From: Zhongshania aliphaticivorans | Lineage (GTDB): Bacteria; Pseudomonadota; Gammaproteobacteria; Pseudomonadales; Spongiibacteraceae | Direction: 5' to 3' | Length of the DNA stretch: 64,000 nt | Assembly (NCBI RefSeq): GCF_902705875.1 | Contig: NZ_CACSIK010000002.1 | Location: 231,121 to 295,120, forward strand | Shown: one piece after another, positions 33,008-58,480 of the stretch | How positions within the stretch are numbered: the first letter of the stretch is position 1 | Layout: each line of letters begins with the position of its first letter | The notes under the pieces: generated by a model | Seen by the model: only the letters and a program-made list of their open reading frames with translations | Databases searched by the model: none | Told to the model about the DNA's origin: nothing | Program-made: the position numbers and the translations under genes

Positions 33008-33170
33008 CACAGTCGCCTTGATAATTGGGTGACACGGGATCGGTCAGCACCTCATTCGCTTTTGCTACGAGTTATTGCAGGCTACGGATCAGATGAAAGC
33101 GTGTGACGGTAGTAATAAATATGAAGTGAGCGGCGCAAACAGTGTTGATTACGCCGCCATTTTCGCCGAA

Positions 33171-37118: not shown

Positions 37119-39509
37119 TTAGAAGCCAACTCTAAAATCAAGTTGATACGTTGTTTGGTCGGGGTGTGGCGTTTTTGTGTAGTTGCCAGGGATAAGTGGT
37201 TGATCCAAAATTAGCACCGCATCTTGTTCTTGAGTGACATTGCGCGCCTGGAAGTTAACCGACCAGCCGCTTACTTCTGATCGCAAACCAAGGCCTACGT
37301 CTGTGCGAGTAACGGCATCTTGTAATGTGTTTGGATCGATGTCTGAATCAAGGTAGCGTTCATCGGTATAAGAAATATTCATCCGAATGCTGCCTAATAT
37401 ATTTGCGCTGCCAAATACTGGGAATTCCCACCGAGGGGATAGTGAGCCTGACCAGCGTGGTGCGTAAGGTAATGGCCTACCACTCAGGTCTTGAGTTTGA
37501 TTTTGTTCAGAGGTGAACAATGGCGGACCTTCAGTAAAGCTATCGTACTTAGCGTCTAAATAGGCCAAGCTGCCTGCAAGGCTTACCCCGTCAATAGGCG
37601 GTAGCCAGAAGAAGTCCATTTCGGCGCCGCGACTTGATGACTCAGGTGCATTAAAGGTGGTGAGGGTAACACCGGAAAATGTGCGTATTTGCAGATTCTT
37701 AACTTCACTGTCGAACACCGCCATATTGAGTGTTAACGATCCGCCAAGAAGCCGAGACTTCATACCCGCTTCATAGGTAAGCGTTTCTTCGCCTTTGTAA
37801 GTTAGGTTGTCATCATTAAGGGGCGCGGGGTCAAACCCGCCAGCTTTAAATCCTTTTGCTGCGTTCACGTAAATATTAATATCGGGCAATACCTCATAAT
37901 TAAATGCGAGTTTTGGTGAGACATTACTTTCTTTGCTGCTTAAGTTGGGAGCGTCAAAGTCACTTTGATTTAATGAGCCACCTGAGATGCTAAGGCCCTC
38001 AGCTACTTGTGAATAAGAAGAACCTTCTGATTCATCTTGGCCATAACGAATACCGGCAGTTGCGGTTAGGCGGTCAGTTAAAATCCAATTAAATTGCGAA
38101 AAAATGGCAAAGGATTGGGTTTCTGATTGGGTTGCAGAAATATATCTTTCCCGCTCAATAAAGCCAGGGATTAAATCGGGTAATGAAATGGGCAGGTCAA
38201 TGAGCAAGGGGTCAAAGGGCAGTTGAATGTTCTGTACTATGGCCCCTGCGCGTGCAAAGGCTACTAGCCCATTTAAGCTAACATCAATGTCTTGAAATAC
38301 GTCGTTGGTAGATTCTTGGGCAAAAACCCCTACAACAAAATCCATACCCTCGCCCCAATCAAAGGGGGCGTTTAAGCCGCCGGCTAGTCGCATTTCAATC
38401 GCTTTTGCCGAATAGGGATTGCCTTTTGGCGGCTCGTTAAAAGCAACCAAAGGTACTGGTGAATAGTCTACATCAAGAGAGTAAGGCGTGATCACCTCGG
38501 ACCAGGAGGCAATGGTTGTGAGTTCTGGCGCTATAATGCCCATTAGCTCATCAGGCTGCCAAATTAAGCTCAAGGACGCGGCTTTTACTTCGCGGTCTGA
38601 TCTGGTTGGCGCGTCAGTGGATGTGTTTTGGTCGAAAGCGTCAGACTCTGTGTCGGGGTCGTATTCTTGGAATACTCGCATGCTGCGGTCACTGGCAATA
38701 AATAATGATTGCGTATAACCCTTGGTTAGCGACTCGGCATATAAGCCAGTGAACTTGGCGGTTAGCGTATCACTTAAGAACCAGCTTAGTTTTAGACGAA
38801 CGGCTTTGTCTTCCTGTGTCTGTTGTTCGTCTCGGGTACTATTGTATTCAAGTGTATCGGCGTCATTATAGCGGAATGCCAACCGACCTAAAAATTTCTC
38901 GCTAAAGATGGGGCCAGATATCGCGCCTTCAATACTATTACTTTCAATATCTTCGCCGTGGCCAAACTTAATAAAACCCTCTGGCTCTGGCGTTGGCTCC
39001 ATGGTGTGAAAATTAAGTACTCCGCCTAGTGTATTTTTACCGAAAAGGGTGCCCTGTGGGCCGCGTAACACTTCTAATCGATCAATATCAAATACCGCAT
39101 CTTGGGCAAAAGTAGAGCGCCCATAGGGAACGTCATCAATAACAAGTCCAATCGAAGGTTCAAAGCCAACGCCAAGTGGCGGTGTGCCGAAGCCACGGAT
39201 GGTAATGCTGGTATACAACGCCAAAGATGAATCAAAGCTTACATTGGGAATATAGCGGGTAATCTCCCCCACATCAGACAGACCAGATTCTTGGATGAAA
39301 TCTGCACCGACGACGGAAATCGAGAGTGGCACATCCTGGGTGCTTTCGGCTTTTTTATTGGCGGTTACAATGACCTCTTCAATAATACGAGGCGCTGCGG
39401 TTAAGGGGCTGCTTAACATGCTTGATCCAACGGTAAAAAGCGTGAAAGCGCCGATTTGTCTAGTGTTCTTGCTGAGTATGGTAAGTGCTGGGATATATTT
39501 TGAGGGCAT
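37119..39509 (-). CDS. TonB-dependent outer-membrane receptor
   Basis: A 796-residue receptor. An N-terminal signal sequence (about 1-38, ending SPLTA-AP) is followed by a TonB-box-like EEVIVTANKKAES, the plug domain (SGLSDVGEITRYIPNVSF; RGPQGTLFGKNTLGG) and a 22-strand barrel ending in the aromatic YQLDFRVGF. This plug type is typical of the large siderophore/sterol/carbohydrate receptor groups of marine proteobacteria. There is no fec-type sigma gene nearby and the ligand is unknown. It is divergent from the ABC-transporter gene that begins the resorcinol-like cluster. Confidence 0.93.
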   Translation of the reverse strand: MPSKYIPALTILSKNTRQIGAFTLFTVGSSMLSSPLTAAPRIIEEVIVTANKKAESTQDVPLSISVVGADFIQESGLSDVGEITRYIPNVSFDSSLALYTSITIRGFGTPPLGVGFEPSIGLVIDDVPYGRSTFAQDAVFDIDRLEVLRGPQGTLFGKNTLGGVLNFHTMEPTPEPEGFIKFGHGEDIESNSIEGAISGPIFSEKFLGRLAFRYNDADTLEYNSTRDEQQTQEDKAVRLKLSWFLSDTLTAKFTGLYAESLTKGYTQSLFIASDRSMRVFQEYDPDTESDAFDQNTSTDAPTRSDREVKAASLSLIWQPDELMGIIAPELTTIASWSEVITPYSLDVDYSPVPLVAFNEPPKGNPYSAKAIEMRLAGGLNAPFDWGEGMDFVVGVFAQESTNDVFQDIDVSLNGLVAFARAGAIVQNIQLPFDPLLIDLPISLPDLIPGFIERERYISATQSETQSFAIFSQFNWILTDRLTATAGIRYGQDESEGSSYSQVAEGLSISGGSLNQSDFDAPNLSSKESNVSPKLAFNYEVLPDINIYVNAAKGFKAGGFDPAPLNDDNLTYKGEETLTYEAGMKSRLLGGSLTLNMAVFDSEVKNLQIRTFSGVTLTTFNAPESSSRGAEMDFFWLPPIDGVSLAGSLAYLDAKYDSFTEGPPLFTSEQNQTQDLSGRPLPYAPRWSGSLSPRWEFPVFGSANILGSIRMNISYTDERYLDSDIDPNTLQDAVTRTDVGLGLRSEVSGWSVNFQARNVTQEQDAVLILDQPLIPGNYTKTPHPDQTTYQLDFRVGF

Positions 39510-39879: not shown

Positions 39880-40842
39880 ATGGAGCAGGACCACTCTCCC
39901 TCGCCGATAGTCATTTTAGAGGCGATCAATCACCGTTATTCTGGGGCCACAGAGGCCGCACTGAAAGATATAAATCTTACGGTTCCTGCGGGTAGTTGTT
40001 TTGGTTTACTTGGGCCTAACGGTGCTGGTAAAACTACCTTGATATCCCTGTTAACCGGAATTATTGCCCCTCAAAATAATAAGCAGTCGTTGCAGGGGCG
40101 TATTCAAATTTCAGGCTTTGATTATTTAAATGACGCGCAGCGTATCAAGACGATTTCGGGGTTAGTGCCACAGGACTACGCATTTTACCCAGCACTTACG
40201 GGGCGGGAAAATCTACAATTTTTTGCAGGGCTATATAACATAGCTGCGAGTCAGCTGCTGGATAGAATAGATTATTGTGTGGCTGTGTGCGGATTAGAAA
40301 AAGTGCTGGACCAACGCGCCGAAACATATTCAGGGGGTATTAAGCGCCGTCTAAACATAGCCTTAGGTTTGCTCAATAAGCCAAAAATTCTTTACTTAGA
40401 TGAACCAACAGTGGGTATTGATGCTCAGTCGCGCTATTTTATTTTACAGGCAATTAGGCAGTTAAAAGCCAGTGGTATGACCATTGTGTACACCTCACAT
40501 TATATGGAAGAGGTTGAGCAAATATGTGATGAAGTGGCGATCATCGATCATGGCGAAGTATTGTTGCAAGCCTCAATGGCAACTTTGTTGATGAATGAGC
40601 GCAAGTTGGTGCTTACCCCTGAGCAACCACTAACGCCGGCGACGCTAGCAATACTTCAAGCCAAAATTGCTGTTGATTGGGATGGAGCACACATGACCGT
40701 GGAGCTTGGCCTGAATCAGGTGATATCTGACGTGTTGCTGTTGATTGAGCAGGCGGGAATTGTGATTAATAAAATGCATTTTGGTAGCAGTAGTCTCGAA
40801 CAAATTTACCTGCAAGCCACCCACCGTAAGTTGAGGCAGTAA
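39880..40842 (+). CDS. ABC transporter ATP-binding protein
   Basis: A 320-residue ATPase of the multidrug/lipid ABC-2 type. Walker A is GPNGAGKTTLISLLTG near residue 45, the signature is YSGGIKRRLNIALGLL and Walker B ILYLDEPTVGIDAQS. The C-terminal 80 residues are a variable tail. It is followed two bases later by its membrane partner, and the pair opens the ACP/ketosynthase operon. Export or membrane placement of the pathway product is the natural inference. A long leader with AAGGA about 11 bases before the ATG is present. Confidence 0.92.
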   Translation: MEQDHSPSPIVILEAINHRYSGATEAALKDINLTVPAGSCFGLLGPNGAGKTTLISLLTGIIAPQNNKQSLQGRIQISGFDYLNDAQRIKTISGLVPQDYAFYPALTGRENLQFFAGLYNIAASQLLDRIDYCVAVCGLEKVLDQRAETYSGGIKRRLNIALGLLNKPKILYLDEPTVGIDAQSRYFILQAIRQLKASGMTIVYTSHYMEEVEQICDEVAIIDHGEVLLQASMATLLMNERKLVLTPEQPLTPATLAILQAKIAVDWDGAHMTVELGLNQVISDVLLLIEQAGIVINKMHFGSSSLEQIYLQATHRKLRQ

Positions 40843-40844
40843 AC

Positions 40845-42050
40845 TTGTTGCAGTTATTGGCTATTATCCGCAAGGAACTATTGCTTTTGTGTCGCGACCT
40901 TCACGGCTTATTGTTGCTTTTTGTAATGCCGTTAGTGTTCATTTTGATAATGTCGTTGGCTATGAAGGACGATTTTGATCGACGTTCAGGCGTGCAGCTA
41001 GATGTATTGGTTTCTGACTTAGAACATTCAGACATCACTCAGAACATGCTAAATAAATTGGCCCAGAATGAGCAGTTCAATTTAATTCGTTTGGCTGAAC
41101 TTGGCGGAGATATTGACGCTGAGCAGGCGATAAAAAGCGATCATTACAGCTTTCTTGTCACGATACCTGAACGCGCTTTTACTGAACAAGCTGAAGACAG
41201 GGTTGTTGCCGATGTATTGGTCGCTCCTGCAACAAGCCCGGTAATAACGCAGTTATTGGTTGCAGCTCTAATCTATGCTGCGGCTGAGCAGAATATGCAA
41301 TTGTCGTTAAAGGCTTTACAAGAATATTCCCCCGAGCTTGAAGGCTTGAGTTTAGTGCCCGATGAAGAACAGAACGAAGGCTTGGTGTCGACGCGTTATG
41401 CTTATAGTGCTAAGAAAACAGCCGAGGCGCCAACATCGGTACAGCAAAATGTTCCTGCGTGGTTAGTGTTTTCGATGTTCTTCGTGGTGATACCGTTAGC
41501 GAATACATTAATAAATGAACGCCAGTTAGGTACATTACGTCGGATTCAAACCATTCCAGTTGCCAGTTGGAAGTTGATAGCCGGAAAGATCATCCCATAT
41601 TTTTTCATCAATCAAATTCAAGTGTTGTTGATGCTGGCGGTAGGGGTGACGATTGTGCCGTTATTAGGTGGTGATCGTTTAACGCTGGGAAGCTCAATTG
41701 CCGGTTTGATGTTAATTTCTGCGGCATTAAGTGTCGCCGCCTTGGGTTATGCCATGTTGATTGCGGTGTTAAGCCGTACTACAGAACAGGCTACAACAAT
41801 GGGGGGCGCGGGAAATATTATTTTGGCGGCAATCGGCGGCATTATGGTGCCTGCTTTTGTTATGCCAGAGTTTATGCAGGCGTTTACGGTTGTGTCACCT
41901 ATGTCTTGGGGGTTGCAGGGACTTTTAGATATATTCTTGCGCGGTGGCGGCATTGCTGAGGTGTACCCAGAGGCTGGAGCACTGTTTTTACTGGGCATGA
42001 TTTTACTGGGTTTTGCCCTGTTATTACTGAGCCGGCATCGTAAATATTAA
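40845..42050 (+). CDS. ABC-2 type transporter permease
   Basis: A 401-residue permease. One membrane helix lies near the N-terminus (about 22-39, GLLLLFVMPLVFILIMSL), a periplasmic domain of about 170 residues follows, then five helices from about residue 200 to 395 (WLVFSMFFVVIPLANTLI; VLLMLAVGVTIVPLL; ALFLLGMILLGFALLLL). This is the ABC-2 permease layout. The start is TTG, two bases after the ATPase stop. Together with the upstream ATPase it forms a complete half-transporter pair. Confidence 0.92.
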   Translation: MLQLLAIIRKELLLLCRDLHGLLLLFVMPLVFILIMSLAMKDDFDRRSGVQLDVLVSDLEHSDITQNMLNKLAQNEQFNLIRLAELGGDIDAEQAIKSDHYSFLVTIPERAFTEQAEDRVVADVLVAPATSPVITQLLVAALIYAAAEQNMQLSLKALQEYSPELEGLSLVPDEEQNEGLVSTRYAYSAKKTAEAPTSVQQNVPAWLVFSMFFVVIPLANTLINERQLGTLRRIQTIPVASWKLIAGKIIPYFFINQIQVLLMLAVGVTIVPLLGGDRLTLGSSIAGLMLISAALSVAALGYAMLIAVLSRTTEQATTMGGAGNIILAAIGGIMVPAFVMPEFMQAFTVVSPMSWGLQGLLDIFLRGGGIAEVYPEAGALFLLGMILLGFALLLLSRHRKY

Positions 42051-42062
42051 GGATTAAATACC

Positions 42063-42332
42063 ATGGAAAACATCTTGCCTCTGGCGCAATTAAAACACGC
42101 ACTGAAGTTATTAATTATTGAAGAGTGCGATAAAGATGTCGAAGCCGAAGACATTGCTGACGATGAAATATTATTTGATTGTGACTTGGACTTAGACTCT
42201 CTTGATGCCTTGCAAATTTGTATGGCCGTTAAATCTAAATACGGCGTACGTATTGAGGGTGGCCCAGATGCGAGAAAGGCTTTACAGTCAATTACGACTT
42301 TAGCGCAAACTATTGTTGAGCATCAGGTTTGA
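42063..42332 (+). CDS. Acyl carrier protein
   Basis: An 89-residue carrier protein. The phosphopantetheine serine is Ser46 in CDLDLDSLDALQICMAV, the classic DSL motif. The helix 2-3 region is acidic as expected. It is the only carrier protein in the cluster. The next gene starts on the TTGA that contains its stop codon, so the two are translationally coupled. It should carry the growing acyl chain for the ketosynthase. Confidence 0.93.
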   Translation: MENILPLAQLKHALKLLIIEECDKDVEAEDIADDEILFDCDLDLDSLDALQICMAVKSKYGVRIEGGPDARKALQSITTLAQTIVEHQV

Positions 42333-43528
42333 TTAGGAAGCAGAGACGTGGCCCTGCGGTATTTTTGGGAGCGGGGATTCACAGTAGCCTCGGAAATGGT
42401 ATTGACGCTAATCTTGCGGCCCTCAAAACATCACCGCAAGTTCCTCGCCTACTTAAAAATACGCTAACAGATGACACACTAGAAATCCCCTATAAAATTC
42501 TGTCCGACTCCCCGTTAATAGACTCACAAGAAAGGTTGTTCCGAGTCGTTGATGATGTGGTGGAGCAGGCTTTGACCGAGGCTGGATTAAGCGAGTCACA
42601 ACGTCATAGCATGAATGTGTACTTGGGTTCTTCATCTTTTGATATTGGCGTAAGTGAAGCACATTTTCAGCAACAGTTGGCCGTTGAAAATGACGCTTGT
42701 AAGGCATTGGCATTGCCAGATCCAAGTATGGCTAACTTGGCTGATTACGTGCTTCAGTCGCTGGGTATTCGCGGTGAGGATATGAGTTTTAACACCGCTT
42801 GTACGGCTAGCGCCAACGCCTTAATGACGGCAGTTGCGCATGTAGAAGCTGGCATCGTAGAGCATGCCTTGGTGTTGGGTGTTGAGCTTTACAACAATGT
42901 GACGGCATTAGGATTTTACAGTTTAGATCTGCTTACCCAATCAGTGATGCGCCCCTTTGATAGCGAGCGGGACGGATTGGTGCTAGGAGAAGGCGTGTCC
43001 GCTTTGGTGATAGGCCGAGATCCAGAGGACGGAGGGACGCGATTTTATCTGCGTGGTGGCGCCAATCTTTGTGATACATACAGCATTACCATGTCTAATG
43101 TTGACGGTTCAGCTATTGCGGAGGTAATGACACAGGCGCTGGACAAGGCCGGTGTGAGCCCTGCAGAGATAGACCTAATAAAAGTGCATGGTACGGCGAG
43201 CCTAGCAAACGATGAAGCGGAGTCGGCGGGAATGCATGCAGTGTTTTCTACTTTACCTAATGTGTGCGCTTTAAAACCATTTATTGGTCACACCTTGGGG
43301 GCTTGTGGATTGAATGAGTTGATTTTATTTTATCGCGCTATCGAAGCTGGGTTTTTAATTGCAACGCCGGGTATTAGCGCTGATGCCGGTGACCTGAATG
43401 TAGTGTTGAACCAGGAGCTTCGCACTGTTGCGCCAGGTTGTTTTATGCTCAATTATTTTGGCTTTGGTGGTAATAATACATCGCTCATTATTAGTAATAA
43501 GCATGATTGCCAAGGAGCGATAGCGTAA
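42329..43528 (+). CDS. 3-oxoacyl-ACP synthase (KAS I/II type), active-site complete
   Basis: A 399-residue condensing enzyme. The catalytic triad is intact: Cys158 in FNTACTASANA, His287 in KVHGTASLANDEAE and His321 in KPFIGHTLGACG. It resembles the FabF/ApeO type ketosynthases of aryl-polyene loci rather than housekeeping FabF. It extends an acyl chain on the ACP by decarboxylative condensation with malonyl-ACP. The start is a TTG overlapping the ACP stop. The following gene encodes a shorter, degenerate homologue; together they look like a ketosynthase and chain-length-factor-like pair. Confidence 0.92.
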   Translation: MIRKQRRGPAVFLGAGIHSSLGNGIDANLAALKTSPQVPRLLKNTLTDDTLEIPYKILSDSPLIDSQERLFRVVDDVVEQALTEAGLSESQRHSMNVYLGSSSFDIGVSEAHFQQQLAVENDACKALALPDPSMANLADYVLQSLGIRGEDMSFNTACTASANALMTAVAHVEAGIVEHALVLGVELYNNVTALGFYSLDLLTQSVMRPFDSERDGLVLGEGVSALVIGRDPEDGGTRFYLRGGANLCDTYSITMSNVDGSAIAEVMTQALDKAGVSPAEIDLIKVHGTASLANDEAESAGMHAVFSTLPNVCALKPFIGHTLGACGLNELILFYRAIEAGFLIATPGISADAGDLNVVLNQELRTVAPGCFMLNYFGFGGNNTSLIISNKHDCQGAIA

Positions 43529-44397
43529 TGACAACCTATATTGTTGCCGTTGGCAGTTATTGCGAACAGGTTGATTGTGAGCTTCCACCTTTGAAAAAAG
43601 TGGTTCAAGAAACTGTGGGTGGGAATATACGAAGAGTCGGGCGTTTTATTCAGTTAGCCCTTATTGGTGCTGGCCGAACATCATCAAAAATATCAACTGA
43701 GACGGCGGTATATCTTACCTCCGGTAGCGGTGATGTTGAAATGACGGTTAATGTACTCAATACCATTTACCGGCAGGCGGAGCCACCACGCCCACTGAGT
43801 TTTATTAATACTGTTAGTAATGCCGCTTGTTTTTATATTGCTCAAACACTGCAATTAAATGGCGCTAGTAGCTTTGTCAGTAGCCGTTACTTTGCTGTGG
43901 AAACAAGCTTGAGAGTGGCGCTCTTGGCACTGGAACAAGGCCAGCAAAAAGCGGCACTAGTCGGTGCTGTTGACTCGGTGGTGCTACCACTTGATGAGCA
44001 CCGGCGACGACTTGGGCTTGATGAAAAAACCAGCGTCGCAGAGGGAAGCCACTGGCTTCAATTGGTAAGTGATCCGTCTGATAGAGATGTGTTGGCTACC
44101 TTAGATGAAGTGCGCCCTTTCTCAACTAGTGAGGCATTGTCGGAATATTTGGCCACATTAACTTTAAGTCCTACTGATTATTTGGCCCTAGGCCAGTCGA
44201 TGGCAATGGATGAGGCCTATTATTGGCAGGAGCTTTTAGGCTTGCCGGTGTTTAAACTTGGTGGCGAGCTTGGGTATTTTAAAAGCCAGGCTGGTGCAGT
44301 GTTTTGTGAGTTTATACGCCGTGGACCGGGCCGGCTTATTTATGTGAATCGTGATCCGCTGGGGCGATATATACTGGTAGTGATTAATAACTGCTGA
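43528..44397 (+). CDS. Degenerate ketosynthase-like protein (chain-length-factor-like)
   Basis: A 289-residue protein, about 110 residues shorter than a ketosynthase. Alignment by motif order gives SNAACFYIAQ (Cys101) at the nucleophile position, but the two catalytic histidines are missing: the HGT motif is absent and the GH-containing loop is replaced by KLGGELGYFKSQAGAV. It cannot be a normal condensing enzyme and is best viewed as a partner subunit, as CLF is for type II ketosynthases. The ATG overlaps the upstream stop (TAATG) and follows an AAGGAGCG box. The exact role is inference. Confidence 0.75.
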   Translation: MTTYIVAVGSYCEQVDCELPPLKKVVQETVGGNIRRVGRFIQLALIGAGRTSSKISTETAVYLTSGSGDVEMTVNVLNTIYRQAEPPRPLSFINTVSNAACFYIAQTLQLNGASSFVSSRYFAVETSLRVALLALEQGQQKAALVGAVDSVVLPLDEHRRRLGLDEKTSVAEGSHWLQLVSDPSDRDVLATLDEVRPFSTSEALSEYLATLTLSPTDYLALGQSMAMDEAYYWQELLGLPVFKLGGELGYFKSQAGAVFCEFIRRGPGRLIYVNRDPLGRYILVVINNC

Positions 44398-44478
44398 GGC
44401 TATGTTGTGTCAGCGTTGTTTCGCGCTATTGGGCTTCCATGGGGTCAACGAACTTCTGTCGACCTGATAAGGACTCGA

Positions 44479-45483
44479 TCAGCGATACTGTTTTAATAGC
44501 TGCCAAGCTTTAGCTTCTTGGTCTGCACAGACATTAAGCAGTGCAGCGAGCTCTTCACCGTTCATCTCCTTACGACCCTTGCACATTTTGCTGCTGACCA
44601 GTGCAAACTGACGCCACTCGTCACCAGCTTCGGCCATCATTTCGCCGGCTTCAGCCAGTAGTTCATTGTTAAGTGCTTTGGCGGTTTCTTTCAGAAATGA
44701 GGCGTAGATAAAGCGAAAGCCTGCGCCACCAGTGCCAATTTCTTCTTGCATACGCACGACGTGACTCAGATAGTGTGGCAAATATTTTTCGCGCTTACTG
44801 GCATTTTTCTCGAGTTTGATAATGCATTTTCCCATGTGTCTTATGCCCCGAAGACCGATGACTGGTAAGGGCGCGCCGGTCATTGTGCGGTGGTTTTTTT
44901 TGATTGCACTGATTGATGCTTTAGCTAAATCAAAACTTTGGGGTACTTGGGTGGGGTAATACATCATGCCTTTGGCGGCAAGTGCGCCTTTGGCAAACCG
45001 CGCTTTTTTAAGCGACGTCACATCACAGCGTACAACATCTTCAAACACGGGATCGCTAATTAGGTAGTCATTACCGTCGCGGCCATAGACCATTAAATTG
45101 TGTGCATTAAAGTGAAAGCGCATGGTTTCAGGAAAATATGGCAACCAGAAAACTGAGGTTTGCAGGCCGACAATTCGGCCTTGATCGAGTTGAAGATCAA
45201 GCTCATCCATTCCTTGTTGCGGGTTGTTGAATGTTTGATAGTGCATCTGCAGGCCAAGCTGTTTTTGAACGCCCTTTATAATACTGCGTGGGGGCATACG
45301 GTAAGCAATTAATGGCATTCCAGATAATTTAATGAACGGTATATAGGCAAAGGCTAGGGCGCTTGCTAAGCCAAAAGCCATTGGTTCTGACAAGCTAAGG
45401 CCGTTGTGACTAAGTAAGCTGGAGGCAACGCCACTTTCGCAATGTGCTGATTGTTGGTGTTTAAACATGTACTTGGCTGCCAT
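44479..45483 (-). CDS. BtrH N-terminal domain protein (putative acyltransferase)
   Basis: A 334-residue protein. The N-terminal half resembles the BtrH family, papain-like proteins that transfer acyl groups from a carrier protein: Cys15 in SAHCESGVASSLL, His124/His128 in FHFNAHNLMVYG and Asp144 in LISDP. A second, helical half (about 200-334) ends with LLKQYR. In butirosin synthesis BtrH transfers an ACP-bound side chain onto the aminoglycoside; by analogy this protein may move an acyl group from the cluster ACP to another molecule. It overlaps the upstream gene's stop by 23 bases, so the two are translated together. It has no signal peptide. Confidence 0.75.
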   Translation of the reverse strand: MAAKYMFKHQQSAHCESGVASSLLSHNGLSLSEPMAFGLASALAFAYIPFIKLSGMPLIAYRMPPRSIIKGVQKQLGLQMHYQTFNNPQQGMDELDLQLDQGRIVGLQTSVFWLPYFPETMRFHFNAHNLMVYGRDGNDYLISDPVFEDVVRCDVTSLKKARFAKGALAAKGMMYYPTQVPQSFDLAKASISAIKKNHRTMTGAPLPVIGLRGIRHMGKCIIKLEKNASKREKYLPHYLSHVVRMQEEIGTGGAGFRFIYASFLKETAKALNNELLAEAGEMMAEAGDEWRQFALVSSKMCKGRKEMNGEELAALLNVCADQEAKAWQLLKQYR

Positions 45484-45892
45484 GAAGTGGGTGGGCGGGC
45501 AATTGCTTTAGAAAATCAATCTCTAAGCCGAGTGCCTCGCTGTAGCGATGAAGAAGCTTTGGTGAAAGTTTTTTAAATATTTCGGGTTTGAAATGACGGC
45601 GAATCCGCCATTGATACAAGCCACTTACTTGAGCTAGTAGCGCTAAATCCATACGTCGAAAATACATAAAATATTCTAGGGCAGCTGTTTCGCCGTTGTA
45701 TGCTCTGCGCCATGCTTCATCGCATTGCTGCTCTATCAGTTTGAGAGCAGATTGCGTTGCTTCGGCTTCAACTATCCAGCCGCTAGATTTTACCCCAATA
45801 AAATCACCGTGTTCGTCCGCGGCATAGATCAACTTATGGGCATTGCCATAGGTGCTGTTTTCGCTGTCTTGGGGAACTTCATCGATTTTCAT
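45461..45892 (-). CDS. Small HTH-like protein in the resorcinol-type cluster
   Basis: A 143-residue protein starting MKIDEVPQDSEN. The C-terminal half (MDLALLAQVSGLYQWRIRRH, then EIFKKLSPKLLHRYSEALGL) reads like a Cro/CI-type helix-turn-helix with recognition helix. I do not recognise the N-terminal half. A longer frame begins 69 bases upstream inside darB but lacks a ribosome-binding site advantage. It lies between darB and the BtrH-like gene, so it may be a regulator or a structural partner; DNA binding is a guess. Confidence 0.6.
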   Translation of the reverse strand: MKIDEVPQDSENSTYGNAHKLIYAADEHGDFIGVKSSGWIVEAEATQSALKLIEQQCDEAWRRAYNGETAALEYFMYFRRMDLALLAQVSGLYQWRIRRHFKPEIFKKLSPKLLHRYSEALGLEIDFLKQLPAHPLHGSQVHV

Positions 45893-45900
45893 TACAGAGA

Positions 45901-47052
45901 TTAAACCACGGTTAAATGTAAAAAGGATGTTGAAAAGCGGCCACTTTCGGGGATGTAACACAAGATGTTTTGGCCCGCTTTTAGCTTGCCAGAACGAAAT
46001 AACTCTTCAAGCATAATGTATATCGAGGCGGCGCCGGTATTGCCTTTTGTTGCTAGATTGGTAAACCAGCGCGACATAGGTATGTCAAAGTCTACCGATT
46101 TTAAGCCGGCAAGGAGTTTTTTGCGGAAAAAAGCTGATGAATAGTGAGGGACAAACCAATCAATGCTATCTGGCTTTAATGAGTATTTGTCTTGTAGCTC
46201 TAAAAGTGGCTTTTTGACGGTGTATTCAATGATATTGTCGTTTAGTAATTTAACGTCTTGCTTCACCGCCATTATGGAATTTTCGGCGCATTGTTGCGGG
46301 CTAAAACTTTGCCAGCCTGTTAGTGTGCCATCTTCATTTTTAACCGCGCCAGCGTACATGCAAGACTCAACTTCTCCTGCATAAGAAATAATATCCAGCC
46401 AATTTATGCGTAGCGATAGGCCTTGGCTTGCAGGTTGGTTGCGAAGCAGCATTGCCCCGGCGCCATCAGATAGCATCCAGCGAAGAAAGTCTTTTTCAAA
46501 CGCTAGCTCGGGCTGCTTTTCTAGATTATCGACATTGGCCTCTATTTCATGGCTAAAATTATCCGCTTTCATACTGGCTGAGGATAAGTCTGAGCCTGTG
46601 GCGATAGCGTTTTGGTGTACGCCTGAGAGTACACCCATATAGGCATACTTCAGCGCGGTGATGCCGCTAAGACAAACCCCTGATGTAGCGATGACCTCGC
46701 AGCGGCGGAGTTTTAGTTGGCCCTGAACCATCACCGCGTGATTGGGCATTAATTGGTCCGGTATTGATGTTCCGCAGCTCAGGCAATTGAGCTCATCTAA
46801 GGTCCATTGCGGGTTAGTAATCGCGTCAATAGCTTTGGCCGTCATGTCAGCGTTGCTGTAATTATGGGCTAATGTTTCTGGGTCTATGGCATAGTGACGA
46901 CTACGAATACCATTGGCGCGTAATACTAAACGACGTGCACGAGAGGTTCGATTTCCGACCTGTCCTAGAATACGTTCCATTTGATCATTTGTGACAGGAG
47001 GGTTGGGAAGAAAAGCGGAAATATCGGTGATATAAACAGCATTATCACTCAT
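45901..47052 (-). CDS. darB: DarB-like KAS III ketosynthase
   Basis: A 383-residue KAS III-family enzyme. The triad is Cys127 (ATSGVCLSGITAL), His303 (VPHYSSAFF) and Asn338 (TKGNTGAAS). DarB enzymes join two 3-oxoacyl-type precursors and close the ring to give 2,5-dialkyl-1,3-cyclohexanediones; the downstream aromatase gives resorcinols. The assignment rests on the family type together with the adjacent darA-like gene. The gene is 23 bases after darA and is followed by the small HTH-like gene. Confidence 0.82.
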   Translation of the reverse strand: MSDNAVYITDISAFLPNPPVTNDQMERILGQVGNRTSRARRLVLRANGIRSRHYAIDPETLAHNYSNADMTAKAIDAITNPQWTLDELNCLSCGTSIPDQLMPNHAVMVQGQLKLRRCEVIATSGVCLSGITALKYAYMGVLSGVHQNAIATGSDLSSASMKADNFSHEIEANVDNLEKQPELAFEKDFLRWMLSDGAGAMLLRNQPASQGLSLRINWLDIISYAGEVESCMYAGAVKNEDGTLTGWQSFSPQQCAENSIMAVKQDVKLLNDNIIEYTVKKPLLELQDKYSLKPDSIDWFVPHYSSAFFRKKLLAGLKSVDFDIPMSRWFTNLATKGNTGAASIYIMLEELFRSGKLKAGQNILCYIPESGRFSTSFLHLTVV

Positions 47053-47075
47053 AACTTAGGGGTCCATTTAATAAA

Positions 47076-48002
47076 TTATTCGCCTGATGGGGCCGCAAAA
47101 TACTGGCGCTGGGCAGCGATGCGTTTTTTCATCAAAGGCGCTAACAGTGTCTTGAAAATAGCGGTTACAGGCACGACGGTTAGGATTAAAGTAATTAAAA
47201 ATAAAATATAAAGGACGAGCACAGCACGGCGAAGTAGTGTGCCGGGTTTACCTAGTGAACGTAGCAATGCACCCCATAAACGAAAGCTGCGAATGGCGAT
47301 TCGCTCAGAGGCTATCAGTCGTTCGTTAATAGTAACCGCGCCTAAGTTTTGCAATAAAGGGGCGTTGTCATTACTTGCTCTAACGGGGAGTTGTTGAGCG
47401 ATGGCTTCGCCAAAGCGTGATGCTGCCTTTATGGCTTTGGCATCGACGCCTGCTGCGGGAATAAGTCCGTTTAAAAAAGGGCCTTTTTTGCCGGTTAATA
47501 CCCATAGTGGTGTAGAGATGAATGTGGCGGCACTGTGGGATGGGTCGGTGAGTACAATATTGTCAATCAAACGAGCACTGAGAAGTGTTAGGTGCCGCTT
47601 TACTTTTTCCTGCGCCATTAACCACATATTACGACAAGCGATGACAGTGATAACAGGGGTGTTGTGCAGTAATTGTTTGGCCGCAGTCGATTGCAGGAAA
47701 GCTGTAATCGGTTGTGCTGGTGATAAAAACCATACTGTATAGGCTAGAATAACTAGGTCAAAGGGTTTCTCTGTCGCAGTGGATAGTGGTGCAATAGGTT
47801 GAGGCTTATCGTGGACAGTTTCTGGAAAATGGTCAAAAAAAGATAAAAAAGGCCAGGGGAAAGGGTAGGGTTTAATCGGCTGCAAGCACTCAAATACTAC
47901 TTCAATATCAGCAGCTTTTTGTAAGGGCTCGGTGATTGAGTTAATCACATTGGTGAGCTGGCCCGATTGGGAGTAATAAATTACAAGTATCCGTTTGTTC
48001 AC
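47076..48002 (-). CDS. darA: DarA-like protein (dialkylresorcinol pathway aromatase type)
   Basis: A 308-residue protein whose N-terminus, ILVIYYSQSGQLTNVINSI, is a flavodoxin-like phosphate-binding loop. The middle carries LAYTVWFLSPAQPITAF and a variable region, and there is a membrane segment near residues 258-282 (LLRRAVLVLYILFLITLILT) with a basic tail after it. DarA proteins of flexirubin and dialkylresorcinol loci have this layout and are reported to aromatise the DarB cyclohexanedione. The C-terminal helix suggests attachment to the inner face of the membrane, near the product's hydrophobic site. A BLAST check against DarA would settle it. Confidence 0.8.
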   Translation of the reverse strand: MNKRILVIYYSQSGQLTNVINSITEPLQKAADIEVVFECLQPIKPYPFPWPFLSFFDHFPETVHDKPQPIAPLSTATEKPFDLVILAYTVWFLSPAQPITAFLQSTAAKQLLHNTPVITVIACRNMWLMAQEKVKRHLTLLSARLIDNIVLTDPSHSAATFISTPLWVLTGKKGPFLNGLIPAAGVDAKAIKAASRFGEAIAQQLPVRASNDNAPLLQNLGAVTINERLIASERIAIRSFRLWGALLRSLGKPGTLLRRAVLVLYILFLITLILTVVPVTAIFKTLLAPLMKKRIAAQRQYFAAPSGE

Positions 48003-48062
48003 AGTCAGTGCGACCCTTCCTGATCTTCAATCATCGATCGGCATTATTGCACAAGGGTCACG

Positions 48063-48413
48063 TTAAACTCTAGCGGGTTTGAGTTTTAGGTGGCCTTCAG
48101 CCATCAAGGTTGAGGGCGTGGCGGCCTCAATTGGCATAGGGGTGGGATCCTCTATCCAGCACTTAAAGCGTAAACCGTTGTTTTTAATGTCGTCAAAGCT
48201 CACGGTAAATGCTTGGTTTGCTTGCAGTGGGAGTAGAAGTTTTAGCTTTTTTATACCGCAGAGCTGCCAGTTGGGATACTTGTCGGCCAATTCATTGAAG
48301 AGAGTACTGAGAATAACAACAGCTGGGACAATGGGTCTATTAGGGAAGTGTCCTGGTAGCGCGGGGTGTTGGTCACTAATTCGGTGACTAGCAGCATTGT
48401 TGGTGACAGTCAT
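48063..48413 (-). CDS. ApeI/FabZ-like hotdog dehydratase
   Basis: A 116-residue hotdog protein with the motif HPALPGHFPNRPIVPAVVIL near residue 17, the ApeI/FabZ-type active-site strand. The remainder is a single hotdog fold (NWQLCGIKKLKLLLPLQANQ). It would dehydrate 3-hydroxyacyl-ACP to the enoyl form. The ATG at 48413 is chosen; an upstream ATG at 48485 adds 24 residues lacking family character. It starts the minus-strand group that includes darA and darB. Confidence 0.8.
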   Translation of the reverse strand: MTVTNNAASHRISDQHPALPGHFPNRPIVPAVVILSTLFNELADKYPNWQLCGIKKLKLLLPLQANQAFTVSFDDIKNNGLRFKCWIEDPTPMPIEAATPSTLMAEGHLKLKPARV

Positions 48414-48510
48414 AGGCGATATCCATTTAGCAGTGCTTGGTATTATAGATCGCTGTAACTCAGTGTTTCCATTACAATTCTGCATATTATCTCAAGGGGC
48501 GAATAGGGTT

Positions 48511-48954
48511 GTGGCCGAACAAGAAGTGATTGATGGTGAGCGGCTTGCAAGTTTATTGCCTCACAGTGGTGCCATGTGTTTATTAGACAAGGTGCTTTCA
48601 TGGGATGAGCGCATTATTCATTGCCGAGCTGAATCTCATCGCAACGCTAATAACCCATTGAGGGATCGAGGCATTTTACCAATACATGCCGGTATTGAGT
48701 ACGCAGCGCAAGCGATGGCGATACATGGTCGCTTATGCCAAGGTCAGGAGGGTGGGCTAAAGATAGGCTACCTAGTGGTGCTAACCGGTGTTGATTGGTA
48801 TTGTCCCAGGTTGGATGATTTACCAGAAGCATTAATGATCGCGGCCGAACGAGTAGTGGCGGCCAATAATGGGTTTAATTATCGCTTTAGTCTTACCCAT
48901 CAGAGCAAGGTGTTATTGGAGGGACAGGCTGTGGTAGCTCTAGAGGAAAACTAA
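48511..48954 (+). CDS. ApeP-like 3-hydroxyacyl-ACP dehydratase
   Basis: A 147-residue hotdog-fold protein. It carries the ApeP family signature LLPHSGAMCLLDKVLSWDER near residue 14, SHRNANNPLRDRG and GIEYAAQAMAIHG. In aryl-polyene systems ApeP and ApeI form a dehydratase pair; here the two genes are also adjacent, but divergent with overlapping 5' regions (48414-48510). The start is GTG 48511 with AAGGGG ahead of it. It lies alone, with the island starting about 210 bases downstream. Confidence 0.85.
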   Translation: MAEQEVIDGERLASLLPHSGAMCLLDKVLSWDERIIHCRAESHRNANNPLRDRGILPIHAGIEYAAQAMAIHGRLCQGQEGGLKIGYLVVLTGVDWYCPRLDDLPEALMIAAERVVAANNGFNYRFSLTHQSKVLLEGQAVVALEEN

Positions 48955-49110
48955 GTTCTCGATTTGGTGACCCTAAATTGTAGTATTTTGGGTCAGCGGT
49001 TTAGCTGATATACGCTGAAAGTGACTTGTAAAGTAAGTGATGTGACATCTACAGATTTTCATCAGCAGGAAACCTGTGATGAAAATCGATGTGTTACTGA
49101 ATTGTGCAGA

Positions 49111-49166: not shown

Positions 49167-49208
49167 GCGCCCGTAGCTCAGCTGGATAGAGCGCCGCCCT
49201 CCGGAGGC
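49167..49208 (+). tRNA. tRNA-Arg(CCG), 5' half only
   Basis: The acceptor strand GCGCCCG, D arm (GCTC...GAGC), anticodon stem CCGCC and loop CTCCGGA with anticodon CCG (49201-49203) are all present. Homology ends after the third base of the 3' anticodon-stem strand: GGC is followed by AA where GG is needed to pair. No T arm or acceptor 3' strand follows. The break is next to the palindrome CCTCCGGAGG (49198-49207), so integration of the neighbouring element into the anticodon stem-loop is the simplest explanation. The next 234 bases hold no gene. Confidence 0.85.
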
Positions 49209-49442: not shown

Positions 49443-50054
49443 TTGCCTGTGTTGGATAATTCTGTGGAGGCGTACGGAGCCACTTTAGAGTTGCACGTAT
49501 CTAAGGATACGCATCTAAAATGTCACGCTAAGGCAAGAAAGGCTTGGCGAAGTTGGCGTGACTTAGAGCGGCAATTTGCGCCCTTTGGCGACATGCCCTT
49601 GACGTTGATTGAGCAGCTGCAGTTGGTGAACCCTATTCATGTCAGACGAAGTACCGATAAAAACAATCCAGAGGTCTTCGAGTTTTTTGGCGGATTTGCT
49701 TCAGTTGCGTTTGTCATGGATGGGCGTCTAGATAGGGCGCTGTTTTGTGTGCATAACAAGCCAACGACGAAAGTCGTTCAGGATACGGCTACGTCGTCGT
49801 TGTTGACCCCTTTGCTGTATAGCTTGCATCGAAAAGATGGGTTATCGAGTCTATATAAGTCAGTAAATACTTACTTCTCTAAGTCTGAGTTGAAGAGCCT
49901 ATTTCCCGGGGGTGGGTTATCGCTATCCCGCATGGCAAAGCTTGCGGGAGTGGGTATTTCTCAGTGTCGCGCTAAGCCTGCTAGTAAGGACAAAATTGAA
50001 GCGCAAGGCACAATATTACAGGCCATCTTTGATGAAAATGATCTCGATTATTGA
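49443..50054 (+). CDS. Small protein of recombinase module, HTH-like C-terminus
   Basis: A 203-residue protein that I do not recognise. Its C-terminal part GGLSLSRMAKLAGVGISQCR reads like a helix-turn-helix, so it may bind DNA. The start is uncertain: TTG 49443, GTG 49449 or GTG 49464 are all possible. Its stop overlaps the start of the next recombinase gene by 23 bases. It resembles the small member of multi-gene recombinase modules such as Tn554 tnpC or gamma-mobile-trio genes in position only. Confidence 0.6.
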   Translation: MPVLDNSVEAYGATLELHVSKDTHLKCHAKARKAWRSWRDLERQFAPFGDMPLTLIEQLQLVNPIHVRRSTDKNNPEVFEFFGGFASVAFVMDGRLDRALFCVHNKPTTKVVQDTATSSLLTPLLYSLHRKDGLSSLYKSVNTYFSKSELKSLFPGGGLSLSRMAKLAGVGISQCRAKPASKDKIEAQGTILQAIFDENDLDY

Positions 50055-52407
50055 AGCGGAGTTGGCAGTGCTAAAAAATGCCGACGGGATAAAAGCGAGC
50101 GCTCAGAAAGACATCCTGGCATATGGCGCAAGTTTGCTAGCTAGATTGGCTGGTGGGGAGTTTGGGCCGCCGCCGGAGGATGAGATTGTCAACGTACTTT
50201 CCGAGTATGAAGCTGATTCAGTTCCGTGTGCTGAAGTTCTTGTTGCTCACTACGAGAGTATAAGGCGCGCTAGAAATGTTGAGGCGTGTATCGTGTCTTG
50301 CATGCTCTGTGCACAGCCTTCGCATAATTCCATTTATTTAGAAAAGCATGAGCGGATTACGGCGTGGGCGTTCCTAGCATGTCTTGCTCTTGATAAGGCC
50401 GATAAGGAGGCGAACCAAGGTGTAATTGAAGAAGGCGCACGTCGAATCCGGCTGATGACGACGCAGAAATATCAGTGGATGTACCAGGAACTGCCAGATT
50501 TCGATAAGTCAATTGAGGATACTCATAAAGCACTTACTGAGCTGATGGCGGGTCTGAGCGATGAGCTCAAAAAGGTCGAGGCTAACTCGGTTGGGTGTGA
50601 GTCCGTGAGTGGCAATGTATTTACTGCAGTTGAGGGCGCTAACCAGCTCCCGGCAATACCAAGATCTAGAAAGCAGTCCATTGGGCATGTCTGCTCTCTA
50701 GTGAAGCATTACTATAAGACGTTATGGCTTGAAGAGGAGGGGAGCGAGCCGGGAGAGTCGATAGATGACCGTAGCACAGTTGTTTCAGTTTCGTCGGCTG
50801 CTGGGCTCGACGATGGCGGTGTCAAGTTTCGCGAATGGCTCGAAAAAGGAACGCAGGCGCATGGAGCAATAGCTGGAGCGGAATTCGACCGTGACCGGCC
50901 CATAGGGGCAAAATATGTCGAACCAAGCTTAAATCATCCCGATAGTATAAATCGGTCGCGGGCTTTAATTCACTATAGAGCTAGTGCGATGGTGAATAGG
51001 ATTGCGATGAGAAATATGGCTAATCCAAGTGATTGGGGTGTTCTTACGTGGTTCGAGGCCACGATATTTGCGCGCGCCGTCACCAATAAGTTAAATACAA
51101 GTAAGTCAGCGGTCCTCGGGTTATTTATGCTTTTGGCAGGGCGGTCAGCCGATAGGGTCAAATTGCTAATTCTGAATACTGGAGCGTCGAGCGCAAAGAC
51201 GCAAAATGACCAGATTCTTTTTAGTGACGATCGCGTTGCTGTGGCGTTTTCGTTGAACCTGCCCGCTCCTGTCGGTGCAGTTGTAGCGAAGTCGTTATTG
51301 ATGCAAGTAAAGAATACGCTTTTCCTGCGCCTGCCACACAGCTTACTGGAGCCGCTTCGGGATCTAACAACGATTTTACCTGAAGATTATGGTTCCGTTG
51401 AGAAGGACCTTAAGGGGTTAATAAAGGAGCTGAATGATCAATATGATCTACGGCTAACTATTCCCCGTCTGTGTGGCTTTTTGCGTAGCCAAATGAGGCG
51501 TCGGCTAGATGATCCGGCCGATGCATCGTTAATCTGCGGAGAAACGCCAGATCAGTGCCCCGCCTTATATTATTATGCTGTCGCGCCAGAGCGTGTTGTT
51601 AGTGAATATCGGGTGTGGGCTGATGAACTGATGGGCGCGGCCGGCATCGCCGGGATATATCCTTCTTGTATACCAAGTCAGGATCAATTAATTGGGAGTA
51701 ATACCCAATTTGATCCAAAATATATTAAGAGTTTGTATAAGCATTTGGCTAGAGCAGTAACCCTCCTCAATAATATCAAAACAAAGGACTATAAGTTATT
51801 TCATAATAAATACATGCTATATGTCTATGAAGTTCTTAGCTTGGCGGTCGGGTATCGGGCTGTTGTTAGTCCGCTAGAAAACATAAAGGACTTTGACCTT
51901 TTTCGGCGTCTACTTTGGATAAGCGATAAAGAAAGCCACAACGGATTGGCCGCTAGAATAGTGCCCTTACCGGAAACCGCGGTAGAAGTAATAGGAGCTG
52001 CTATACGCCACATCGAAAGATTGGCTCAGTATTTAAGGCCCTATGAGCCTGAGATAGCCGCATACTTGTCTTTGTCAGTCTCCGGGGATAACCCATTTTT
52101 GTCGATGTTTGATCGTAGAGGGAAATTGGTGCCCCTTCGTCCGTCAATATTGACTAAGGTACTAAAGGACGCGTGGCCGTTCGCATTAAATTGGCAGCGC
52201 CATTTCATGCGGACACATCTACGAGACAAAAATGTGCCAGGGGACCTAGTAAATGCTTGGATGGGCCACTCGGAGTTTGGAGAAGAGGCGTTAGGTCCGT
52301 GGAGCGGCCTAAGTATCGCTGACTTAAGGCGATTAGAGTTGGTAATTCAAGAAATTCTGTCTGAATTAGATATTGAGGTCATTGAAGGCTGGCAGCGGTA
52401 CAACTAG
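50032..52407 (+). CDS. Large tyrosine-recombinase-like protein lacking the nucleophile Tyr
   Basis: A 791-residue protein. The C-terminal 200 residues resemble a tyrosine recombinase: first Arg (Arg609, SLAVGYRAVVSP), Arg/Lys region RIVPLPETA, His724-x-x-Arg727 (RHFMRTHLR) and His746 (AWMGHSEFGEE). The usual Tyr 8-12 residues after that His is missing; the segment reads GEEALGPWSGLSIADLRR without Tyr. A longer frame starts at 49912 inside the previous gene but the ATG 50032 fits a normal overlap. Function as a recombinase partner rather than a stand-alone enzyme is inferred. Confidence 0.75.
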   Translation: MKMISIIEAELAVLKNADGIKASAQKDILAYGASLLARLAGGEFGPPPEDEIVNVLSEYEADSVPCAEVLVAHYESIRRARNVEACIVSCMLCAQPSHNSIYLEKHERITAWAFLACLALDKADKEANQGVIEEGARRIRLMTTQKYQWMYQELPDFDKSIEDTHKALTELMAGLSDELKKVEANSVGCESVSGNVFTAVEGANQLPAIPRSRKQSIGHVCSLVKHYYKTLWLEEEGSEPGESIDDRSTVVSVSSAAGLDDGGVKFREWLEKGTQAHGAIAGAEFDRDRPIGAKYVEPSLNHPDSINRSRALIHYRASAMVNRIAMRNMANPSDWGVLTWFEATIFARAVTNKLNTSKSAVLGLFMLLAGRSADRVKLLILNTGASSAKTQNDQILFSDDRVAVAFSLNLPAPVGAVVAKSLLMQVKNTLFLRLPHSLLEPLRDLTTILPEDYGSVEKDLKGLIKELNDQYDLRLTIPRLCGFLRSQMRRRLDDPADASLICGETPDQCPALYYYAVAPERVVSEYRVWADELMGAAGIAGIYPSCIPSQDQLIGSNTQFDPKYIKSLYKHLARAVTLLNNIKTKDYKLFHNKYMLYVYEVLSLAVGYRAVVSPLENIKDFDLFRRLLWISDKESHNGLAARIVPLPETAVEVIGAAIRHIERLAQYLRPYEPEIAAYLSLSVSGDNPFLSMFDRRGKLVPLRPSILTKVLKDAWPFALNWQRHFMRTHLRDKNVPGDLVNAWMGHSEFGEEALGPWSGLSIADLRRLELVIQEILSELDIEVIEGWQRYN

Positions 52408-52439
52408 TCGTTGATTAATAATCTAGGCGAGGAATTTCA

Positions 52440-56085: not shown

Positions 56086-56152
56086 TTGACGACAACTATC
56101 TTGGCCGGTTGGGTGTAACGTTCGGTACTTTGATTTTCCCTTGGAGAACAGC

Positions 56153-58431: not shown

Positions 58432-58454
58432 CCGGCCATCATAGTTGTCGCCGA

Positions 58455-58480
58455 CCGGCCAAGATAGTTGACGCCAGACA
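58455..58480. repeat. IS21 right terminal inverted repeat
   Basis: Read on the minus strand it begins TGTCTGGCGTCAACTATCTT, pairing with the left end. It is followed on the plus strand by the duplicated target TCAGTT. Confidence 0.85.

What the first reader, a model, noticed from the sequence alone, without database searches (positions are those of the whole stretch)
39880..48954. Hybrid cluster for an exported dialkylresorcinol or cyclohexanedione lipid with a BtrH-type acyl transfer step
Seen: an ABC exporter, one ACP, a complete ketosynthase, a degenerate partner, two hotdog dehydratases (ApeI-like and ApeP-like), DarB- and DarA-like enzymes and a BtrH-family protein, in three adjacent transcription units. 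Known: DarB forms cyclohexanediones from two acyl precursors and DarA aromatises them; BtrH-type proteins move acyl groups off carrier proteins. No ketoreductase, AMP ligase or ammonia lyase is present, so precursors must come from fatty acid synthesis. Inference: the product is a resorcinolic lipid that is acyl-transferred to an acceptor and exported or placed in the membrane. This combination is not one I know as a described system.
Basis: partly seen in the sequence, partly recalled or inferred. Interest (0 to 1): 0.82.

Follow-up and report, generated by a model that had tools for sequence, protein, structure and literature searches.

The report
Resorcinol half of a polyene pigment
This marine bacterium seems to carry the resorcinol-making half of an arcuflavin- or flexirubin-like pigment pathway, with the polyene-making half elsewhere in its genome; the cluster type is known, but here it has an extra pair of dehydratase genes.

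Summary
The genes are really there: eleven genes in three apparent transcription units at 39880-48954. The block matches in content the dialkylresorcinol (dar) locus tabulated for the arcuflavin producer Azoarcus sp. BH72 (PMC3949708 Table 1). NCBIfam already names the BtrH-like protein DarH.

DarH genomes carry a polyene marker: 18 of 18 against 69 of 351 others in a class sample. In the genus only 2 of 18 genomes have DarH or the marker, and they have both.

Best reading: DarB/DarA make a dialkylresorcinol and DarH esterifies the polyene acid onto it, giving an arcuflavin/flexirubin-type pigment. The esterification is inferred; no product is known.

The new element is modest: in 5 of 78 surveyed loci the dar block carries its own ApeI:ApeP-like dehydratase pair. 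A variant of a known kind.

The parts
39880..40842 (+). ABC transporter ATPase (darF type in the Azoarcus table)
   Evidence: PF00005 94.6 bits; homologue in 74 of 78 DarH loci
40845..42050 (+). ABC-2 permease (darI type)
   Evidence: PF12698 113.4 bits; 70 of 78 loci
42063..42332 (+). acyl carrier protein (darC type)
   Evidence: PF00550 25.5 bits; 39% identical to an ACP of the host's polyene operon; 69 of 78 loci
42329..43528 (+). ketosynthase with Cys-His-His (darJ type)
   Evidence: PF00109/PF02801; PRK09185 200.4 bits, below its cut-off of 407; residues in the alignment; 53 of 78 loci
43507..44397 (+). degenerate ketosynthase-like partner, possible chain-length factor (darK position)
   Evidence: PF00109 25.2 bits; Cys and both His absent; 478 homologues at E 0.001
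44479..45483 (-). DarH (darE type), BtrH-type acyltransferase, candidate ester-forming enzyme
   Evidence: NF053550 489.7 bits; C15, H128, D144 invariant in 34 sequences
45461..45892 (-). DarG-family protein (darD type), function unknown
   Evidence: NF053536 157.5 bits; alignment of 30; 74 of 78 loci
45901..47052 (-). DarB/StlD-type ketosynthase-cyclase
   Evidence: NF005293 601.7 bits; StlD 5gk0 459 bits; 61 of 78 loci
47076..48002 (-). DarA, resorcinol-forming aromatase
   Evidence: homologues named dialkylrecorsinol condensing enzyme, 84% identical in Zhongshania aliphaticivorans; 38 of 78 loci
48063..48485 (-). hotdog dehydratase subunit, ApeI-like, brings the GHFP histidine
   Evidence: best PDB hit 6qsr_A, E 0.0092; profile 9.2e-7 to 6qsr_A, with several FabZ chains scoring as well or better; 5 of 78 loci
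48511..48954 (+). hotdog dehydratase subunit, ApeP-like, brings the glutamate
   Evidence: best PDB hit 6qsr_B, E 0.014, profile 1.1e-6; 32% identical to the host's ApeP over 113 residues; 5 of 78 loci

Best explanation
The locus is the dialkylresorcinol half of a two-locus pathway for an aryl-polyene/dialkylresorcinol ester pigment of the arcuflavin/flexirubin kind. A dedicated ACP, a KS with a KS-like partner and, in this lineage, an ApeI:ApeP-type dehydratase pair prepare acyl chains. DarB joins a beta-ketoacyl and a 2-enoyl chain into a cyclohexanedione and DarA aromatises it to a dialkylresorcinol. The aryl-polyene operon on another contig makes the polyene acid. DarH, through a Cys-His-Asp acyl-enzyme, esterifies the polyene from its ACP onto a phenolic OH of the resorcinol. 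The ABC exporter and the polyene operon's LolA/MMPL parts move the pigment to the envelope. Shown here: gene content, co-occurrence, residue conservation. Inferred: the chemistry in this host, DarH as the ester-forming enzyme, export.
For: Same kind of gene set as the dar locus of the arcuflavin producer. Polyene operon in the same genome. DarH over cut-off against the polyene marker PF13723: 18 of 18 versus 69 of 351; 40 of 41 searched genomes of the 78 DarH loci. In the genus, 2 of 18 genomes have both and none has one alone. Dar block beside or among polyene-type genes in L108, L107, L106 and L025. Invariant C15/H128/D144 in DarH, whose N-terminal domain family is classed with papain-like enzymes (PMC10318531 passages). 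No aromatic ammonia lyase found, which fits a hydroxybenzoate starter as in E. coli and Azoarcus.
Against: No product is known for this host. Three class-sample genomes have DarB over its cut-off plus the marker but no DarH (G239 96% complete, G262 82%, G145 85%). 40 of 78 DarH loci held no DarA in the DNA available, mostly records titled Desulfo- or Deltaproteobacteria, where the marker hits are weak and often in long frames. One of 41 DarH genomes lacks the marker. Only 4 of 78 loci show three or more of eight polyene-type genes in the held DNA, so linkage is the exception. Fisher tests ignore shared ancestry, and the marker stands in for a whole polyene cluster. The flexirubin paper proposed another enzyme, FlxW, for the joining step.
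Confidence: 0.8

Rival explanations
1. A free dialkylresorcinol (signal, radical scavenger or antibiotic), as recalled for Pseudomonas chlororaphis, is the product; the polyene operon is independent and DarH has another role, such as loading the ACP.
For: DarB-like genes without DarH or the polyene marker exist (4 sub-cut-off cases: G118, G343, G060, G265). darA and darB of Chitinophaga pinensis alone gave a dialkylresorcinol on heterologous expression, as the flexirubin paper reports.
Against: DarH over cut-off tracks the polyene marker even where the two are unlinked; [quoted passage not shown]
Confidence: 0.1
2. One reading: a resorcinolic lipid built only from fatty-acid precursors and acyl-transferred to an unknown acceptor, then exported.
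For: No KR, AMP ligase or lyase inside 39880-48954.
Against: KR and AMP ligase are in the genome's polyene operon, and this kind of gene set has a described product class.
Confidence: 0.05
3. The dar block makes its own unsaturated chain with its KS pair and dehydratase pair, so the resorcinol itself bears a polyene or dienyl arm, esterified or not. (This overlaps with the best explanation.)
For: Dedicated ACP, KS, KS-like partner and a complementary His/Glu hotdog pair besides the host's own ApeI and ApeP.
Against: DarB itself is thought to need a 2-enoyl chain (recalled), which would explain a dehydratase without any polyene; there is no dedicated KR in the block; DarJ is only 27% identical to the host's ApeO.
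Confidence: 0.2

Closest known systems
Azoarcus sp. BH72 dar locus, azo0283-0293 (arcuflavin; PMC3949708: abstract, Introduction, first part of Results with Table 1, Discussion seen)
   Same: ABC ATPase and permease, ACP, ketosynthase, darK, BtrH-like, conserved hypothetical, DarB, DarA; polyene clusters not linked to each other and numbered apart from the dar genes
   Different: Azoarcus has PilT/PHD genes within the locus and no dehydratase listed in it; here there are convergent operons with a hotdog pair added. Compared by annotation; the Azoarcus proteins themselves were not fetched
Flexirubin clusters of Chitinophaga pinensis and Flavobacterium johnsoniae (PMC3992019: abstract and first part of Results seen)
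   Same: DarA/DarB resorcinol joined to an aryl polyene by an ester
   Different: Tyrosine ammonia-lyase starter there; no aromatic ammonia lyase found in this genome. FlxW was proposed there for the joining step
Aryl-polyene (APE) clusters of E. coli, Xenorhabdus and Acinetobacter (PMC8253772, PMC8041823, PMC8358021: passages only)
   Same: KS with a degenerate partner, ACP, heterodimeric ApeI/ApeP dehydratase; the host's polyene operon has ApeI fused to the ligase, as in A. baumannii
   Different: The dar block lacks KR, ligase and lipid parts and adds DarA/DarB/DarH/DarG
Butirosin BtrH (PMC10318531: passages only)
   Same: BtrH_N domain; acyl transfer from a carrier protein
   Different: Aminoglycoside acceptor there; here a DUF4872 C-terminal domain and the DarH family

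Membership tests
dar locus of the arcuflavin/flexirubin kind | DarB/StlD-type ketosynthase | tested here: met
   NF005293 601.7 bits, cut-off 450; the narrower NF053539 DarB model scores 503.5, below its cut-off of 550
dar locus of the arcuflavin/flexirubin kind | DarA aromatase next to DarB | tested here: met
   homologue names; gap 23 nt
dar locus of the arcuflavin/flexirubin kind | BtrH-like acyltransferase, conserved hypothetical, ACP, KS and ABC pair in the block | tested here: met
   compared by annotation with Table 1
dar locus of the arcuflavin/flexirubin kind | aryl-polyene biosynthesis genes in the same genome | tested here: met
   C1:2354875-2369649
dar locus of the arcuflavin/flexirubin kind | polyene-dialkylresorcinol ester produced | not testable with these tools
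   needs extraction and mass spectrometry
flexirubin in the strict sense (coumaroyl-started) | aromatic ammonia lyase for the starter | tested here: not met
   PF00221: no match at E 0.001 in the genome, 100% complete
BtrH-type acyltransferase | BtrH_N domain with conserved Cys, His, Asp | tested here: met
   PF14399 167.7 bits; C15/H128/D144 invariant in 34; the catalytic role is inferred
ApeI:ApeP heterodimeric dehydratase | two hotdog subunits sharing one His/Glu active site | tested here: inconclusive
   GHFP His invariant in 6 hotdog 1 sequences, Glu63/Gln67 invariant in 6 hotdog 2 sequences; best single-sequence PDB hits are the two chains of 6qsr at weak E-values; neither passes a Pfam cut-off and FabZ chains score as well for hotdog 1

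The most novel reading that the evidence does not exclude
In this lineage the dar block carries a second, nearly complete polyene-type synthase (own ACP, KS with KS-like partner, ApeI:ApeP-type dehydratase pair) that builds an unsaturated arm for the resorcinol. The pigment would then be a polyene esterified to an alkenyl or polyenyl resorcinol: two polyene machines, one molecule, with the ketoreductase shared between loci.
Probability: 0.18. Interest if true: 0.6.

Novelty: new variant of a known kind. Interest (0 to 1): 0.35.

Why it matters
The enzyme that joins polyene and resorcinol in flexirubin-type pigments is, in the papers seen here, only proposed. The co-occurrence of DarH with a polyene marker, also in unlinked positions and within one genus, makes DarH a specific, testable candidate in a marine bacterium. 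The dehydratase pair suggests that resorcinol side chains in some lineages may not be plain fatty acids.

Tried and rejected
- 'Stand-alone cluster fed by fatty acid synthesis': rejected after finding the polyene operon in the same genome.
- 'The marker PF13723 might just be darK': checked in L106, L107 and L108, where the marker places fall beside ApeO-type or at ApeC-type genes, not at darK. The window's darK does not match PF13723 at E 0.01. Not checked in the other genomes; one listed distant darK homologue (P0222) does carry PF13723, so a few marker hits could be darK.
- Flexirubin in the strict sense: no aromatic ammonia lyase found.
PDB sequence and profile searches gave nothing useful for DarH, DarA or DarG (best E 0.27).
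- DarG looked by eye like a degenerate helix-turn-helix protein; no search supports it.
- Plasmid records: 52 match DarH, all below 60% identity; their surroundings were not examined.
- An empty dar site in the genus: the neighbouring histidine kinase was found in 1 of 8 genomes searched (G419); its region aligned with the window only up to 37010, short of the dar block. This does not show what stood there before.
- Literature: nine library searches, open PMC papers only, judged by listings, abstracts' beginnings and the passages and sections named elsewhere. 'darH' with 'flexirubin' gave only PMC3949708. I saw no report in them that tests the BtrH-like protein of a dar locus or describes hotdog genes in one; the supplementary tables of PMC3949708, which list further loci, were not read (no look-ups in supplements were allowed).
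Full report
What is there. The window is G000:C2:231121-295120 of a 3.98-Mb genome; its nearest named relative among the loci is Zhongshania aliphaticivorans (DarH 88-89% identical). At 39880-48954 lie eleven genes: a + operon (ABC ATPase, permease, ACP, KS, KS-like), a convergent - operon (hotdog 1, DarA, DarB, DarG, DarH) and a divergent + gene (hotdog 2); gaps inside the operons are -23 to +60 nt.

Known cluster type. Table 1 of PMC3949708 lists for Azoarcus sp. BH72 darA, darB, darD (conserved hypothetical), darE (BtrH-like peptidase), darF and darI (ABC), darC (ACP), darJ (KS) and darK (hypothetical), beside two polyene loci that are not physically linked to each other. The product is arcuflavin, described as a xanthomonadin-like polyene predicted to be ester-linked to a dialkylresorcinol. 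NCBIfam has models called 'BtrH-related acyltransferase DarH' and 'DarG family dialkylresorcinol biosynthesis protein', which the window proteins match above cut-off. Names clash: NCBIfam DarH/DarG correspond by type to darE/darD of the Azoarcus table, whose own darG/darH are a PHD/PilT pair.

The missing half. A whole-genome family search for ketosynthases led to C1:2354875-2369649 (L102:2875-17649). There lies a tight operon: PF13723 KS-like, acyltransferase, ACP, AMP ligase fused to ApeI (PF22818, 58.3 bits, cut-off 28.5), glycosyltransferase, lipid-A-type acyltransferase, thioesterase, LolA, MMPL, an FAD-dependent protein (best NCBIfam match a halogenase, far below cut-off), KS PRK09185 (476.5 bits, cut-off 407), ketoreductase (398.2 bits, cut-off 273), KS PRK09116 (717.3 bits, cut-off 470), DUF3261 and ApeP (53.8 bits, cut-off 27). 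A second ACP-like frame of about 80 codons lies between the ACP and the 186-aa gene, read by eye. No methyltransferase was seen among the genes scanned. So the KR and AMP ligase are not missing from the genome. PF00221 ammonia lyases were not found, which suits a hydroxybenzoate starter.

Co-occurrence. One search covered the genomes of 41 of the 78 DarH loci for PF13723: 40 of 41 match, 28 of them at E below 1e-20. Of the 12 weaker ones, 7 lie in frames of 731-795 codons and may be a different enzyme. In a class sample of 369 genomes, DarH over cut-off occurs in 18 (3 further sub-cut-off matches were left out, of which G142 has the marker and G054 and G179 do not). The marker occurs in 87. 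All 18 have it, against 69 of the other 351 (Fisher 1.2e-12). DarB over cut-off occurs in 21, all with the marker, 3 without DarH (two of these genomes are only 82-85% complete); 4 lower-scoring DarB-like genomes have neither DarH nor the marker. Among 57 relatives, DarH over cut-off is in 6, all with the marker, against 7 of 51; 3 sub-cut-off matches were left out (G455 with the marker, G452 and G432 without). In the genus (18 genomes) only G000 and G426 have DarH and only they have the marker, on different contigs. G426 is very probably the Z. aliphaticivorans genome of L024: the marker lies at the identical contig place as in G001. These may reflect one event in a shared ancestor, and the tests ignore ancestry. 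DarH genomes are thus tied to the marker; the marker is a proxy for a polyene cluster, confirmed as such only in the host, L106, L107 and L108.

Physical linkage. In L108 a polyene operon directly precedes the dar block; in L106 and L107 polyene-type genes flank it. In L025 the dar block with its hotdogs lies among polyene-type genes, and its contig appears to hold a second ApeP (equating the contig is my inference from coordinates). But only 4 of 78 loci show three or more of eight polyene-type genes in the held DNA, which reaches at most 10 kb on each side.

Survey of 78 DarH loci (tblastn E 1e-4; many loci are cut by contig ends, and diverged homologues are missed): ATPase 74, permease 70, ACP 69, KS 53, DarG 74, DarB 61, DarA 38 (38 also by profile), KS-like partner 13 (22 by profile, about half of them weak), hotdogs 5 and 5, in the same five loci L024-L028 (Zhongshania, a gammaproteobacterial MAG and three Caulobacteraceae by record title). 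In the loci titled Desulfo- or Deltaproteobacteria, DarB and KS hits are often not adjacent to DarH.

The dehydratase pair. Hotdog 1 keeps an invariant GHFP histidine in 6 sequences; hotdog 2 keeps an invariant Glu63/Gln67 in 6 and lacks GHFP. The complementary residues fit the heterodimeric ApeI/ApeP dehydratases 'with a single active site' (PMC8041823 passage); which residue does what is recalled from FabZ. Single-sequence PDB searches put the two chains of one entry, 6qsr, first for each, at weak E-values. Profiles give 6qsr_B 1.1e-6 for hotdog 2 and 6qsr_A 9.2e-7 for hotdog 1, where several FabZ chains score as well or better and repeat-protein chains score on a 21-residue stretch that looks spurious. 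That 6qsr is the Xenorhabdus ApeI:ApeP complex is recalled. The host also has its own ApeP and ApeI, so this is a second pair there.

Mechanism. DarB joins a beta-ketoacyl with a 2-enoyl chain (recalled; the paper says two fatty acid metabolism intermediates). The block's KS pair could supply the first and the dehydratase pair the second. DarJ keeps Cys-His-His; DarK has lost all three in the alignment, as a chain-length-factor-like partner would; the APE partner is described as about half the size of its KS (PMC8358021 passage). DarH: H14-C15-E16-S17-G18, H128 and D144-P145 are invariant in 34 sequences (the window and 33 of the 82 other DarH frames found). BtrH_N is placed near the papain-like C39 and C70 families and described as part of an ACP:aminoglycoside acyltransferase (PMC10318531 passages). 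A Cys-acyl ping-pong transfer of polyene from ACP to resorcinol is my proposal; not shown.

Surroundings. Hotdog 2 ends about 210 nt before a tRNA-Arg gene that is cut short, probably by an integrase-bearing element (see Noticed in passing). The patchy genus distribution fits gain or loss of both clusters together. Verdict: real and correctly spotted, but a known cluster type; the dehydratase pair is a modest variant.

Noticed in passing
window 49167-49208; L118:1501-1577; L024:247-323: A tRNA-Arg (ccg) gene is cut off after the anticodon region just downstream of hotdog 2; an intact copy lies 67.7 kb further on C2, and L024 has an intact one about 6 kb from its dar block. Looks like the edge of an integrated island.
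   Followed up: partly
window 49443-55505: Three + strand frames, the last (1021 aa) with a Phage_integrase domain, the other two without a Pfam or NCBIfam match; they begin inside the presumed island.
   Followed up: partly
window 56087-58476: IS21-type element (transposase and IstB) with 26-nt inverted ends, 88% complementary.
   Followed up: no
window 58823-60146: DUF6088 protein followed by an AbiEii-type nucleotidyltransferase, possibly a toxin-antitoxin pair.
   Followed up: no
window 45880-45897 and 49074-49091: 18-nt inverted repeat, 94% complementary; one arm covers the start of DarG, the other lies after hotdog 2. Unexplained, may be chance.
   Followed up: no
window 37119-39509: TonB-dependent receptor divergent from the exporter operon, kept next to the dar block in L024 (89%); no match in the held DNA of the other 77 loci.
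   Followed up: no
window 31601-33010: Short-chain dehydrogenase fused to a Polyketide_cyc2 domain, about 7 kb upstream.
   Followed up: no
L113, L112: Distant DarB/StlD-like genes with no other dar or polyene gene of the query set matched in the held DNA; product unclear.
   Followed up: no
L109, L110, L111: DarA and DarB without DarH, DarG, exporter, ACP or KS of this block, in genomes that carry the polyene marker: how their resorcinol would be esterified, if it is, is open.
   Followed up: no
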